From assembly GCA_937950065.1 (NCBI GenBank), contig CALFEN010000066.1:1-10622 (forward strand): a stretch of 10,622 nucleotides of DNA, read 5' to 3'. The position numbers were made by a program, and so were the translations under genes. The stretch is from an uncultured bacterium (GTDB lineage: Bacteria; Patescibacteria; JAEDAM01; Absconditabacterales; Absconditicoccaceae). The notes beneath the pieces were generated by a model, which was given only the letters and a program-made list of their open reading frames with translations, made no database searches and had not been told where the DNA came from. Each line of letters begins with the position of its first letter. Positions within the stretch are counted from its first letter, which is position 1. Shown here one piece after another: positions 2 to 10,622 of the stretch.

Positions 2-3000
2 TATACTTACAATACTACTCTCACTAACTTATCTATTCCGCGATCTTTTACTGACGGGAATAACTTTTGGAAAATTAGAGCTCAAGATGCTACTGGGAAC
101 CTATCCGACTATACCGACGAAATGCAATTTACTGTGAGTTGATGAATTTCTTCAAACTGATGAATTATATTTTTATCCGGCAAATATACTAATAACAGCA
201 GTACTAGCGTAAAAGTTTATTCCTCTTGATATAATTTCTTTACAATGAGCGGTAGTGGAATAGAATGAATACTAACATGAACTTTTGTATGATCATGAGT
301 TTATGACGTATCTCTCTCTACTTGAAATTGACAAAAAAACGTTTCTATACAATTCTCAAGCGGATCTACATATTCTGATATTTACACATGAAGTATTATA
401 CTAGATACTGTAGGCCCTACTATATCTGTTACAAATTATAGTTCCTGACAAAATGTAACATGAAATATTACTCTAATTTGAGTATTTAATGATACATATA
501 GTATTACAGGTTTTAATATCTTGCATAACTGGACAAGTATTAATCATACTTATTCTTTTGGATGATATGGTCTTGAATATACTCCAGCATGATCTATATC
601 AGATTCATGAGACTGATACTCCTATGCAGCCACTTGAAACGGCACAAGCGTTGTATCTTCATGGACTAAAAATCTGACATTGAGTTGCTGAAAAAATACA
701 ATAACTATAACATGACAAGATTATGCATGAAATCCAGCCAGTACATCATTGGATATTTATAGAAATTGATTGTTGTCATCTAGCTATGCAACCCCTATAG
801 ATTGAAATACAGTAACTATGCATATATACTTTGATATACCTGTAGCCTGATATTCTATACAATATGGAACTGACGCAAGTAATCTCACAGGTATTATTGG
901 TGGAGGGTCTTCTTCTTACTTTACATGAATTAGCGTTACTTTAGGTAGTCTATCAGCAAACACTAGGTATTATTATAAAATACAAGCTACAGACTGTGGT
1001 GATTCGCCTATATCCAATTTGATGACATTTACTACTCCAAAAACAATAAATATTTCCGAACTTACTTGAACAATTATCACTACATGATCAGTGATATTTA
1101 CAGGAATAACTTCTACATGAGCAATTTTTAATACAACATGAACTCTTGATTTGAATTCTGAAACATGAGCAAATAATATCACACTAAACGCAAGTGGTCT
1201 TACTATTACAGCCAGCGGTTGAAATTGGGATTGAATTATCCTTGCTCCATATCTTATGCCTACCACTTGAAGTATTGTTATAAGCGGATATTCCAGAATA
1301 GACGACCTTACATATGGAATATGAAATCCAGATGTTGAATTATTCTTTTCAGGGCAGGTAGCTAATGTGAGTCTTGATGTATGAAGTAGCTATAATGGAC
1401 AGACTTTATACGTATACAGATCTTGAGATGGTTGATTGACTTATTCAAGCATTTGAAGCTGTCTAGTCTCATTATGAATATGTAAATTTACTACAGACAG
1501 ATTTTCAGTATTTACTCTGCTACAAAGCACTGACGATGTTCCAGACCAATTTACATTTGTAGATCAATGAAGTTTGGATCTAAATACTACAGTCACTTCA
1601 AACCAAATCACCATATCCTGAATAACAACATGAGTAACTGCTACTGTTTCTTGAGGTGAATACAAAGTAAACAATGGATATCGGGTAACAACTAATACCA
1701 CAGTTTATAGTGGAGATCAGATTACTTTGAGAGGAACGACATCATCAAACTATTCCACAACAGTAAATGTAGTTTTTAATGCATGAAGCGTTTTTGATAC
1801 CTTCTCTATTACAACCAAATCATGAGGCTCAAGTTCAGGCGGTGGAAGTACTATCGGCGGTGGTTGATCCTACTATCCTTCAAGGCTCTCTTGAGATGAT
1901 GATGACGATAGTGATGACGATGACGAAAATAATAATGAAAATCCAGATTCATGAGATGACGATCAATGAGACGATGATAGCGATATAAGCCAATCAGAAA
2001 AAGATCTATTGGAAGAAGCACAATCTCTAAATAAAATTCCTTTGGAAGTAGTTATAAACTGAATCACATATTATATAAATGTTCCTGTATTTAAAGATGA
2101 TGGTTATAATGATAAAATGCAGAAAATTTCTTTACAAGTATCAGAGTATCTAAAAAAGAAAAAGTTTGCAGACACTAAAACCAAAGAAGCAATAGATAAA
2201 TACAATGACTTCCTTGGTATGCTGAAACTATCCAAAGACAGATGAAATGATGATGCAAAAGATTTTGCAAAAAAATATTTAAACGAATTTGTACAAATCC
2301 TTAAATCTTCAAATTCATGAGACTCCAATACCAATCCTTCAGATGGATCACGAGACGACAGTAAAAATCCTTCTACTTGAAATGATTACAATAGTGAAAT
2401 ATCAAAGGCATTGATATTTATGTATGACAACTGACTTACAAAATACTATACTTTGAATTATTATAGGCCTTATGAAAAAATAACCAGAGAGCAAGCCGCT
2501 AAAATGCTAGTATGATTTGCAAAAAACGTGCTATGAAAGAAACCGGATTTATCAAAAACTTGTTATTTTTCAGATATATCAAACGCTGATCCTAGTTTGA
2601 AAAGCTATATTACAGAATCCTGTCAACTTGGTATATTTAAGTGAACTGGCGGAAAATTTTATCCGTTTGCTCCTATGACAAAAGCGGAAATCTCTGCTGT
2701 ATTGGTAAGGACGCTGTACGGAAGCATGAATGAAAGCGGAAACTATTGGTTTGCAAATTATGCAACCAAAGCTAAAATAATGGGAATAACAAACGAAACA
2801 AATATATCTAACTTCTTGAAACCATTGACCAGATATGAAATAGCATTGATGATCTATAGAGCTTCACAGTTTGCAGACAGTTCCAATTATATAAGCTCAT
2901 CATCAAGCAATTCTACATCAAGTTCTACGGCATCATCTTCAACCTCTGACAGCGGCATCTCGACCAGCCAATCTGTAGAATCTAGTGAAGATTCTCAAAC

Positions 3001-3043
3001 AGAATCAGAATTTGATTCCTTGATAGAAAATCTTTTTAAATAA
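2..3043 (+). CDS. Large secreted surface protein, Ig/FN3-like domains plus C-terminal SLH domains (5' end outside window)
   Basis: The frame stays open for 1013 codons to TAA when TGA is read as Gly (about 59 in-frame TGAs); the start lies upstream of the window. Visible order: Ser/Thr/Gly/Asn-rich beta domains of Ig-like type; an FN3-like domain at residues ~263-346 with the typical strand LSANTRYYYKIQATD; a beta module ending in C-x(6)-CKFTTDRFSVFTLL (~residues 420-500); another beta domain; a Gly- then Asp-rich linker (~600-660); a Lys-rich helical segment (~665-770); then three SLH-like segments (~800-845, ~852-907, ~916-963) containing ITREQAAKMLVGFA, TKAEISAVLVRTLYG and LTRYEIALMIYRA; and a Ser-rich acidic tail. 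Two Cys in SLH segment 2 could form a disulfide. SLH domains usually anchor proteins to cell-wall polymer, so I infer a long cell-surface protein, possibly for attachment. The Asp-rich stretch may bind calcium. The ligand is unknown. Confidence 0.88.
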
Positions 3044-3193: not shown

Positions 3194-4576
3194 ATGAAAA
3201 AAATAGTATTTTTTTTAACGCTCTTATTCGCAAGTTTTGGAACTTTTGCTATGTCAAACCCAGCTTCAGAAAATTGTACAGCTAATTGAGGGGAGATAAA
3301 ACTTGAAAAAATTTGAGACGGATCAGTAATCGGTGTTTGTTATTTTGATGACAACAGACAATGCGAAGAATGGGCTATGTACAGAAATGAATGTCCTGTA
3401 GGATGATTGAAAGTCACAGGGTATGTACTAGATTCTTCTAGATACTGTGCAATCGTAGGAGGAACATTTACTCCAAAACAAGATGAATCAATCCCAGAAA
3501 AAGCTGACCAACTTGGGACTTGTACTTTACCAAACGGAAAGACATTAAACGCTCGGGATCTATACAACAATAAAGCAGATAGCGGATTAAGTTGAGATTT
3601 TTTGAGTTGAGAAGTACTTCCTTTGAGCGGAACAGGAGAAATAAGTGCTGAAGTCGCTATGACAAATACAACTCAAAGCTGTGGTTCTATTTGAGCAGCA
3701 TTAGAAGAACAAAACATGGCATTAGCCGACGCTTTCGTAGTAAAATATAATAAGAAATTATCAACATTAAGCGCAGACAAACAAGAGAAACTTCAAATAA
3801 AAGTTATTGCAAATTTGGATAAATTTATACAAAAATATGAAGGGGAAACTTGAGATAAATATACAGAAATAGTAAATGTATTGAGATACATAGAATGTAT
3901 GATAGACAAGTCTACAGGAGTAGACAATCCTGATACAGATACTGACACTACTTCACAAGAAATCCAAACATTGAGTATAGACGATATAACCGATGTAATG
4001 TCATGAGATGACAGAGTAATATTATACGACAGTGGATATATTGTACTGAATATCAAGTATCCTGTAGTATGATTGGCAGAAATCGATGATGCTACAAAAA
4101 CTTTTGTGTATAGCGAGATAGAAAACTTTATCAAAGATCTGCCTCAAGAAAAACCTTATGTAGAAGATATGCAATATTCATTATATATAGATTATACATT
4201 GAATAACGTAGATAATAAATATATAACTATAAAATTTAGCCTATCATCTTATTTTGGATGAGCACATCCAAGTAATTATATCAAAACATTCAATTTTGAT
4301 AAAGAAACTCAAAAAGACATTTCTTTGGAAGAATACTTAACATGAAAAGCTGATTATCTAACTAAACTTTCAAATTTATCTTATGCTGCATTGTCAGGAA
4401 ATGAAGCCTTGACAGATTTGAATCGGATAAAAGAATGAACAGCCGCTACAGGCACAAACTACCAATTTTTTAATGTAATAGACTGATGACTTACTGTTTA
4501 TTTCCCTGCATATCAAGTTGGTCCTTATGCCGCTTGAGAACAATCTATAGATATAAAACTAGACGATATAAAATAG
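3194..4576 (+). CDS. Secreted protein with two DUF333 units and a DUF3298/RsiV-like C-terminal domain
   Basis: 460 residues, 15 in-frame TGA read as Gly, stop TAG. The start is the first ATG of the frame and gives an ideal signal peptide: MKK, a hydrophobic core, then a likely cut after TFA at residue 19; there is no lipobox Cys. Residues 22-71 are a textbook DUF333 domain: NPAS-x-NC, GG, GVC-x-F, QCEEWA, ECPVGG, with Cys 28, 49, 57 and 67 probably disulfide-bonded. Residues ~83-125 look like a second, degenerate DUF333 unit (YC..VGG.F, LG.C.LPNGK, LYN). A middle helical region (~170-240) and a Thr/Asp linker follow. Residues ~261-460 match the DUF4163/DUF3298 type found in PdaC and RsiV: YFGGAHPSNYIKTFNFD with SLEEYL, and the closing VYFPAYQVGPYAAGEQ. 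Neither domain has an assigned catalytic role here. I infer an extracellular or envelope protein, perhaps wall-associated; the 'hemolysin' label sometimes given to DUF333 is not supported. Confidence 0.9.
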
Positions 4577-6574: not shown

Positions 6575-8224
6575 ATGAATAAAAAAATCTTTATGTTTAT
6601 GCTATTAATTTTTGGTTTATTTTCTCTTACTAGTATAAACATAGTAAGTGCAGACAACGATGATGAAACTTGAAATGTCAATTATACATATTCTGGAATC
6701 GATGAAGCAAAACAAATTTTATCTGACAAATTAGACGAATATAACACAGCTTTGGTAAATTCTCTAGAGACTTTACAAAGTAAATTTAAAAACAATACAG
6801 ATTATCTAATCCTCAAAGCTCTCGGGAAAATAAATATCGGAGATATAAACGTCAAAATGCTTGAACAATATTTTAGTATAAAAACTTCTCTGGTTTCTGA
6901 TTACACTACTATAAATTCAAACTTTTCAATACTTGAAGAAAAGAAAAAATATTGACTTGTTTCTGATACAGATTACACCAGTCAGAAACAGAATTTAAAC
7001 GCCTCCGTTGATGCATTTTTCAGTAAATATTTATCTCTGATTACAGGATTTAACTCCACATACAGCGGAGATAGCGGACAGGTAGCAAATTTCAGCGGAA
7101 ATATTACTAACCTCATATCCTCAAACCAGTCAATATTATCAGGATACGAAGCTCAATACTCTACAATGCAGGATATTGTTTCTAAATACAAAACGTTTGA
7201 TACATATGTGAATCAAATTAAAAATTTATACGATGTAAATTATGACAATCTTTATAATTATATTTCAGATGTAAAGGATATTACAGCAAAAGATTTGGAA
7301 TCTTCTCTGGAAAAACAAATAAGCAATTATTATTCTCAATACAAAAATCTAGAGTATTACAGCGGAGACATCTCTTCCTATAAAGACTCTACAATCTCTT
7401 CATACAAACTTGAAATAGATAATTTTTTAGTAAGTCTTATAAAATCTTTTTATACATCAGATGAATATGATTTTATTACCAATAATTATCTTTCTTTTAA
7501 AACAACTTATATGACCGGCGACGATATAGATTTTAATGCTCTTGTAAATACATCTTTATCCGGAGTATATACAAAGCTTAACTCTACAATGGAAGACGTA
7601 AACGCAAACATAAAAGCTAAACTCAACGCTCTAAACAATCCTTGAACCGTAAATGATGTACAGACAGTCTTGAATCAAGAAGTAGAAAACTATTACAAAA
7701 CAAACAAACAAACAAAACTTGACGATTTTAAATCTTATCTAGACAAGGAGGTAGAACTTATGACTTATAAAACTTCAAGCGAACTTGATTCTTATAATGT
7801 GATAGCAGGCAGAGTCAGTGATGCTCAATCCTTAACATGAGAAGAAAAGCTAGCCGCACTGAAATCATTGATTGATGATATATCAACATTTGAAAGTGGT
7901 CTTATAGACCAATCACTAAAGTCTCAATCAATGAAAATATGGGCTCAAGCTAAAATTGATTATATAGACGCATACATAGAAAACTGAAATTTTAACGTGG
8001 TAGCAGCCAAATACGGAGATATAGATTCCCAATTAAAAAGTATAATGTTATCATTGGAAGAAGACGCTAAAACAAAATGAAAATCTGATACACTTATAGG
8101 AAAAGTACAAACCTGAATAGTAAATGCTGAAAAACTTTTGGCTAAAGATAATGTTTCAAGTAAGAACCAATATCTTATCTTAAAAATAGAAAAAGCCTTG
8201 ATTCGGTTTATATATATAAAATAA
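6575..8224 (+). CDS. Secreted helix-rich protein of unknown function (549 residues)
   Basis: I do not recognise a family. A clear signal peptide (MNKK, hydrophobic core, likely cut after VSA at residue 26) is followed by an acidic start DNDDE. The mature part is nearly all predicted helix, rich in Lys, Asp, Ser, Tyr and Asn, with heptad-like stretches such as IDEAKQILSDKLDEYNTALVNSLETLQSKF and SLEEDAKTKGKSDTLIGKVQ, suggesting elongated helical bundles or coiled coils. No cysteine was found and only one Trp. NTDYLILKALGKI near residue 76 resembles NQYLILKIEKALI at the C-terminus, hinting at repeated helical units. There is no lipobox, transmembrane anchor, LPxTG or SLH motif. Seven TGA codons are read as Gly. 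Stop TAA. It is followed after only 8 nt by the pseudopilin-RCC1 gene, so the products probably act together at the cell surface, but that is inference. The ATG fits the signal peptide; there is no Shine-Dalgarno. Confidence 0.85.
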
Positions 8225-8232
8225 TTTTCTTT

Positions 8233-10622
8233 ATGAATAAACTAAAAAGGAATAAATCATTTACCATTATAGAACTTTTATTTGTAGCTGTTGTTTCTGC
8301 TATGATTCTTACCGTAGTTATAATGCTATATATAAGAATGATAGGAGTAAAAAGTGAAATAGAATGAAAACAAACCTTGATACAATCCGCTTATGGAATG
8401 ATGGAAAGGGTTGGAGTATTGATGCAAAACTATACCATAGATTATGAAGAATATTATAACAGAAAACTTCACTGATGTGGCGGAGGAATGTGATGATGAT
8501 TTTGGAATGTAGATAAGACTTGAGAAGGAGGAACTTGAAATTGTGCAAATTTCACAGAATACGGCAATAATAGTTCTTATGCTTTTGGTTCTTATGCTAC
8601 ATGATTTTGGACCCCATGAAGTGATGGGATCTGGGGAACTGATGACGACTATGACGCTGGAGATTCTGTTGATGCGATATCAGACAATAATAATGTGCAA
8701 GAACTTTATCTTATTTCCAAAGATAAAAAAGAAAGGCTATTTTTGAGAAGAAAATTTTTGTGAACTGCTAACTACTCATGATTTGAGGCAGGTAATAACT
8801 ATACTTCCGACAGACTATACAGCATACAAATGTTAAGACTCAGATGATTTGACGCTGGTAAAGATCACAATTTTACGATTAATGCTACAAATGGAGCCTA
8901 TGACGGAAAAATAGACACTCGAGCTTGTGACTACTCAAAATGATTCACTTGAAGTTGAGCAGCATTGCCTTCTCCATACTCCAATTATCATCTGCCTGCT
9001 AACTCTGACGATTGTCGAGTAGACTTTTTCCCAAGTAATCTAACTATATCTTCTTGGAATTTGGAAATAAATCCTACCAAAGACCCTACTTTAGCTTGGG
9101 ACAATTTGGATGTACAAATGAATCCATATGTAAAAATAAACATAAAAGCCAAGTTATTTGCTGAATCATGGTTTTCTAAAATCCCAAGCAAAAGACTAAA
9201 CAACTACGAAATAAATTTACAAACTATGTTTAATATAAAAACTAATTATGCAAATCCTTCATCAAATACTCAAGACATAAGCGTTTCCGGTTTGACACCT
9301 GCTTCTGCAACTAGTAGTTCCTGATGATGAAGTACGCCGACTTCTACTCCTATTAATGGAGTATGCTGAACAGCAAATAAAACTTATTCATACACAGATA
9401 CAAGTTTTGGTAGTGATACTCTATGTACTTCGTGAACTGCTAGTCCTGCCAGTATTATTTTCCCAGATCCTGGAACTAGTGTTTCACGACAATGTCTATG
9501 ATTAAGTTGATGAGTAGACACTGTTTGTACTGCAAGCAGGGATAATCTAACAATAGTACACACTGAATGACCTCTCTGACTTTGAGATAATTTTTGATGT
9601 GCTTTATCTTCCGATGCTTCCGTGTACTGCTGGGGCTACAATGGACAATGAGCTCTATGAGATGGGACAAAAGTAAGTAGAACTACTGCCAGCAAAATCC
9701 CTACCAGTATACAATTTAGTGCCATTGGAGCAGGGTTTTATCATGCTTGCGGAATAACCGCAGCTGGAGATATATACTGTTGGGGAGATAACGCCTTCTC
9801 TCAATTATGAGATGGAACTAATACAGACAGAACGTCTCCCACAAAAGTGAATACTAGTATAAAATTTAAATACATGAGCGTGTGATGAAACAACACCTGT
9901 GCTATATCCACAGACGATTATGTATATTGTTGGGGACGGAATCTTGACTGACAAATATGAGACGGTACAAGCGGAGTTGGCACTAATAAAGCGGTTCCGA
10001 CCAAAGTAAGCGGGACTTTAAAATTTGCTACAATAACCGTGGGAAGTCGACATGTATGCTGATTATTGGACGATGGTACCGCTTACTGCTGGGGAGGAAA
10101 CAACAATGGAGAATTATGAGATGGAACAAAAATAGATAAAAATGTTCCAACAGCTGTATCCACAACATTAAAATTTACTCAAATAACATATGGCTGCGGA
10201 TTGTCTACTGACGGTCGGACTTACTGCTGGGGAGCAAATGAACACTCACAACTTTGAGATGGAACTTCAGCAACTTTTAGATCTAAACCTTCCAAAGTAT
10301 ATACCACCGTCAAGTTTTCTTACATATTTGGGAGGGGAGACAGATATTGAGTAACCTCAAACTTTACTCCTTATGTATGGGGGATCAACTGATATGGGCA
10401 AGCCTGAAGACCAGCAGGAAGCAGCGGAGGAGCCGACCGGATTACTCTTCCTATGACATTAAGTGCTAGTACTATGAAATTTTCTAGTATAGATGACTGA
10501 TGAAATTTTTGTTGTGGAATAAACGCGGCAGATAATAAAGTGTATTGTTGGGGACGGGGAGCCGGTGGAGAATTATGAAATTGAGTATCAAACTCATCTC
10601 TTTACCAACATATACCTGTGCC
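8233..10622 (+). CDS. Type IV pilin-like protein fused to an RCC1-type beta-propeller (3' end outside window)
   Basis: At least 796 residues; the frame is open to the window edge. MNKLKRNKSFTIIELLFVAVVSAMILTVVIMLYI is a class III/type IV prepilin leader and N-terminal helix: basic leader, F10 as +1, Glu14 as the conserved +5. Position -1 is Ser, not the usual Gly. Next come a Gly-rich stretch (80-92), an Asp-rich segment (TDDDYDAGD), a pilin/PulG-like globular region to ~350, a Ser/Thr/Gly linker with three consecutive TGA-coded Gly (364-366), and a Cys-rich module (NGVCGTANKTYSY, residues ~376-440). From ~448 there are seven RCC1 repeats of about 50 residues with the motif C-(A/G)-(I/L)...YCWG-x-N-x-x-(G/S)-Q-L-GDGT; Trp codons start at 9631, 9781, 9931, 10090, 10228, 10378 and 10549. 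Seven matches a closed RCC1 propeller. In six repeats a Cys pair could form a disulfide; repeat 6 is degenerate and lacks both. Probably a surface-exposed minor pilin or adhesin. Confidence 0.88.

What the first reader, a model, noticed from the sequence alone, without database searches (positions are those of the whole stretch)
8233..10622. Pseudopilin fused to a complete seven-repeat RCC1 propeller
A type IV pilin N-terminus leads through linkers and a Cys-rich module into seven RCC1-like repeats with regular spacing of 46-57 residues. Seven blades is the number needed to close the fold. Six blades carry a C...YCWG Cys pair, which suits an extracellular, oxidised propeller. Such a tip-like adhesin on a pilus could be a host-binding device of an episymbiotic bacterium.
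Basis: partly seen in the sequence, partly recalled or inferred. Interest (0 to 1): 0.7.

Follow-up and report, generated by a model that had tools for sequence, protein, structure and literature searches.

The report
Pilin carrying an RCC1 propeller head
A bacterium that reads the stop codon TGA as glycine makes a pilus subunit ending in a seven-bladed, receptor-like propeller that probably helps its pilus stick to another cell; a similar protein is already known from a related parasite, but here the head sits on a different pilin.

The parts
8233..9249 (+). Pilin module, residues 1-339: short basic leader, then FTIIE (F10 as +1, Glu5 = E14), long helix 12-64, beta sheet; ends LQTMFNIKTNY
   Evidence: Family of 362 proteins; F10, T11 and E14 invariant in 16 of 16 aligned members; AF2 helix and sheet; N_methyl 16.4 bits, below cut-off
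9250..9342 (+). Low-complexity Ser/Thr/Gly/Pro linker, residues 340-370; starts at the graft junction
   Evidence: Stand-alone relatives P0124 and P0125 end at the residue before it; pLDDT under 50
9343..9552 (+). Cys-rich module, residues 371-440, four Cys
   Evidence: 38-56% identical matches in stretches of 3 unnamed Patescibacteria-phylum genomes, in several copies in one of them; no Pfam match; not modelled with confidence
9568..10620 (+). Seven RCC1 repeats forming a closed propeller, residues 446-796; the frame runs off the window
6575..8224 (+). Upstream gene for a 549-aa protein with a signal-peptide-like start, 8 bases before the pilin ATG; possible operon partner
   Evidence: ORF under table 25; no Pfam match above its cut-off

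Best explanation
It is a modular type IV pilin of a code-25 bacterium (Absconditabacteria/Gracilibacteria). The N-terminal pilin module would be cut by prepilin peptidase and built into the minor-pilin complex at the end of a type IV pilus. The flexible linker and Cys-rich module hold a seven-bladed RCC1 propeller out from the filament, and the propeller's face binds a protein or glycan on another cell, tethering this episymbiont or predator to its host. Shown here: the architecture, the graft point and the predicted folds. Inferred: assembly into a pilus, tip position, binding and host contact.
For: Continuous code-25 frame with TGA used for Gly in every segment (15 of 32, 3 of 4, 5 of 8, 21 of 58). 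Pilin family confined, among the 6 of 120 listed members with an organism name, to Absconditabacteria/Gracilibacteria. Closest relatives end at the graft point. Confident pilin core and propeller. Precedent: loss of the RCC1-propeller pilin PilX2 in TM7x cuts host binding (PMC12206443, passages). Modular pilins present binding modules, probably at tips (PMC8179133, PMC9934059, passages). Vampirococcus lugosii, whose protein P0231 is in this pilin family, has many type IV pilus proteins and kills its host (PMC8080830, passages).
Against: No ligand, no tip data and no pilus genes in the window. N-methyl motif below the Pfam cut-off. Only one copy of this exact fusion was found, so it is rare or poorly sampled. 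The Cys-rich module is unmodelled. The PilX2 carrier is of another kind, so its phenotype transfers only by analogy.
Confidence: 0.62

Rival explanations
1. The propeller caps or primes the pilus, as PilY1 does, and helps assembly rather than binding a host.
For: The TM7x authors raise priming for PilX1 and PilX2; delta-pilX2 changed thick-pilus diameter and length (PMC12206443, passages).
Against: Thin pili were still made in delta-pilX2. Closest relatives of the present pilin have no propeller, so the family does not need one.
Confidence: 0.15
2. The pilin works in a type II secretion-like pseudopilus or DNA-uptake pilus, and the propeller captures secreted protein, DNA or nutrients.
For: Sources name some relatives 'type II secretion system protein' or 'PulG'. 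Vampirococcus pili are thought to serve DNA uptake too (PMC8080830, passages).
Against: Such names follow the shared N-terminal motif. No secretion gene was seen in the window.
Confidence: 0.13
3. The pilin-like start only anchors a surface propeller in the membrane; the protein never enters a filament.
For: N-methyl motif is weak; Ser, not Gly, precedes the cut site; no pilin genes beside it in the window.
Against: A complete pilin core with Glu5 is kept and is conserved in 16 of 16 aligned relatives.
Confidence: 0.07
4. The fusion is an assembly artefact.
For: GC rises from 0.33 in the pilin to 0.41 in the propeller; no second species with the fusion was found.
Against: GC3 is alike (0.25 and 0.29), TGA glycine runs through all segments, the frame is unbroken, and the catalogue holds the protein on two contigs, the longest 26,169 bases.
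Confidence: 0.03

Closest known systems
PilX2 of Nanosynbacter lyticus TM7x (Saccharibacteria), PMC12206443
   Same: Minor pilin with a C-terminal seven-bladed RCC1 propeller in an episymbiont; needed for normal host binding there
   Different: PilX2 was not predicted to have a PilD signal; PilX2-like carriers found here lack Glu5 and show no detectable similarity to this pilin module. This protein keeps Glu5 and adds a Cys-rich module.
Stand-alone Absconditabacteria/Gracilibacteria pilins (P0124, P0125; P0153 of Absconditicoccus praedator)
   Same: Homologous pilin module along its length
   Different: They end at the NIKTNY-type terminus, without linker, Cys module or propeller
Modular pilins PilB and PilC of Streptococcus sanguinis, PMC8179133 and PMC9934059
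   Same: Pilin plus a linked binding module presented by the pilus
   Different: Modules are vWA and lectin; the passages read name no RCC1 architecture (0 occurrences of RCC1)
UVR8 / RCC1-like domains; BLIP-II
   Different: Not attached to pilins
PilC/PilY1 pilus adhesins
   Same: A beta-propeller linked to pilus tips
   Different: Another propeller family; not itself a pilin (PMC8179133, passages)

Membership tests
Modular type IV pilin | N-terminal prepilin motif followed by a long hydrophobic helix | tested here: met
   SFTIIELL with F10/T11/E14 invariant in 16 of 16; helix 12-64. Against: Pfam N_methyl 16.4 bits, cut-off 21.2
Modular type IV pilin | Pilin module plus a separate non-pilin module | tested here: met
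   Stand-alone relatives end at residue 339; RCC1 domain follows
Modular type IV pilin | Assembled into a filament | not testable with these tools
   Needs pili; no genome held
RCC1-like propeller | RCC1 repeats above the family cut-off | tested here: met
   PF00415 164 bits (cut-off 21.7), PF25390 202 bits (cut-off 150)
RCC1-like propeller | Seven blades closing a ring | tested here: met
PilX2-type carrier | PilX/K-like pilin start without Glu5 | tested here: not met
   E14 present; hhalign of the pilin family with the PilX2-like start of L072: probability 0.3
PilX2-type carrier | Gene in a row of minor pilin genes | tested here: inconclusive
   None upstream in the window; the window ends inside the gene, so downstream is unseen
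J-position (PilW/GspJ-like) minor pilin | Homology to the third pilin of a minor-pilin row | tested here: inconclusive
   Match to the third pilin in L091 (probability 98.8, 281 columns), but only 30 columns, probability 33.8, to the pilin before the propeller gene in L072
PilC/PilY1 | Neisseria PilC beta-propeller domain (PF05567, number recalled) | tested here: not met
   No such match up to E 0.1

The most novel reading that the evidence does not exclude
The RCC1 propeller is an interchangeable host-recognition head that parasitic small bacteria have mounted several times, independently, on different pilins of the pilus tip: on PilX/K-like pilins in Saccharibacteria-like genomes, on a PilA-like pilin (L074), and here on the J-like pilin of a code-25 lineage whose relatives are predators.
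Probability: 0.45. Interest if true: 0.62.

Novelty: new variant of a known kind. Interest (0 to 1): 0.42.

Why it matters
How small parasitic bacteria recognise their hosts is largely open. If the same propeller was mounted repeatedly on unrelated pilins, it marks the host-recognition part and gives a soluble, foldable domain to test for ligands. The stand-alone relatives give natural no-head controls with an exact junction.

Tried and rejected
Single-genome checks of pilB, pilC and pilD: not possible, no genome is held. Search of 379 genomes of the phylum of L008 for a code-25 relative with the window's ClpP: among the matches listed none had the several in-frame TGA expected of a code-25 genome, but the list was cut. 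Viral contigs and phages: nothing. A search for proteins of 438-1393 aa with this pilin module returned only the gene itself and P0122 (458 aa, no propeller) among 4299 candidates; the later profile search could only see about 188-597 aa, so longer fusions may have been missed.

First alignment (A1) put other proteins' repeats on the pilin module and was not used. The alignment for the full-length model (A3) had all 16 RCC1 rows misplaced, which I saw only after handing the job in; hence its propeller is poor (mean pLDDT 63, pTM 0.50) and the second job modelled residues 366-796 alone. Neither model shows the Cys module. A sequence profile against solved structures gave only geopilin at E 0.07.

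I considered an unprecedented architecture and dropped it because of PilX2. I considered the Cys pair as a special mark of this protein and dropped it. My first motif screen for pilin starts required Glu5 and therefore missed the PilX-like carriers seen.

Full report
What is there. The window uses the code of SR1 and Gracilibacteria: with TGA read as glycine, 8233-10620 is one frame of 796 residues containing 44 TGA and no TAA or TAG, open at the window end. The same code opens the neighbouring genes (SLH protein: TGA is 59 of 106 glycine codons; ClpP: 14 of 15). A catalogue protein, P0002, is the same gene read with TGA as Trp; it has 803 residues, seven more than the window, and lies on two contigs, the longest 26,169 bases. 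I could not see whether it ends at a stop codon.

Pilin module. The profile search with residues 1-341 and P0122 found 362 proteins, of which 120 are listed. Six of the 120 carry an organism name, and all six are Absconditabacteria, SR1, Gracilibacteria or Vampirococcus (that these belong together is partly recalled). In the printed last 22 residues, 119 of 120 end at or shortly after the same LQT-type terminus; P0168 has a tail of some 24 residues. P0124 (340 aa, 64%) and P0125 (336 aa, 66%) are near-identical in length to the module and end at NIKTNY, exactly before this protein's linker. This marks residue 339 as the graft point. The search only admitted proteins of about 188-597 aa, so it cannot tell how often the family carries large heads. 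In the AF2 model the helix 12-64 and most of the sheet have block means over 90, with dips at 81-90, 91-100 and 211-230.

Cys-rich module. Matches of 38-56% identity occur in the stretches from genomes G024, G265 (five copies in L044) and G288. It is a recurrent module of such genomes, without a Pfam name.

Precedent and relatives. TM7x PilX2 is a minor pilin with a hepta-bladed RCC1 propeller; bound hosts fall from about 10.6% to 4.6% in its deletion, thin pili remain, and the authors propose it as adhesin (PMC12206443, passages). Of the library's papers, one holds RCC1, propeller and pilin together and one holds RCC1 and Patescibacteria, this same paper; subscription papers are mostly not held. 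In 379 genomes of the phylum of the Nomurabacteria locus L008, 48 match the protein somewhere. I fetched 38 stretches; they hold 29 frames with two or more RCC1 motifs, and by my reading 7 of 29, from 6 genomes, start like a pilin (two of the 29 have no visible start). Six of the seven have a PilX-like start without Glu5; five of these six share further residues. L073 matches PilX_N at 19.3 bits, cut-off 25.5; L074 has N_methyl at 34.2 bits, cut-off 21.2. In L065, L068 and L072 the gene stands in a row of pilin genes: of 10 neighbours tested, 9 match N_methyl at E 0.01 or better and 8 reach its cut-off.

Independent graft. The profile of the present pilin family does not match the PilX2-like start in L072 (probability 0.3), and the propellers are only 31% identical, less than the 39-44% that unrelated proteins reach over comparable stretches. 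It does match the third pilin of the row in L091 (98.8). Against a simple J label, it matches the pilin just before the propeller gene in L072 only over the N-terminal 30 columns. In the HIJK scheme K lacks Glu5 and caps the tip (PMC9934059, passages). So the same head appears on a K-like carrier there and on a Glu5-bearing, perhaps J-like, carrier here. P0031 (1077 aa) is a further pilin-like start with 11 RCC1 stretches.

How it would work. Inferred: prepilin peptidase cuts before F10, the pilin joins the minor-pilin tip complex, the linker lets the propeller stand out, and its face binds a host surface molecule, giving first contact before closer attachment. I put this at 0.62, priming at 0.15, secretion or DNA capture at 0.13, a plain membrane anchor at 0.07 and an artefact at 0.03.

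Verdict. The new points are the lineage, the different carrier, the exact junction with head-less relatives, and the likelihood that the head was mounted more than once.

Noticed in passing
window 2-3043 +: Surface protein with an SLH domain, open at its 5' end; TGA is 59 of 106 glycine codons.
   Followed up: partly
window 3194-4576 +: Protein with a signal-peptide-like start and DUF333, DUF3298 and PdaC matches.
   Followed up: no
window 6575-8224 +: 549-aa protein with a signal-peptide-like start and no known family, 8 bases upstream of the pilin gene; might be a partner.
   Followed up: no
P0031: Another protein with a pilin-like start and RCC1 repeats (11 Pfam stretches), on an unrelated carrier.
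   Followed up: partly
   Followed up: partly
pilin family, residues 67-82 and 137-139 of the window protein: Strongly conserved (T)IDYEEYxxR..GC stretch after the first helix and an Asp-rich loop (D139 invariant in 16 of 16), possibly a metal site.
   Followed up: no
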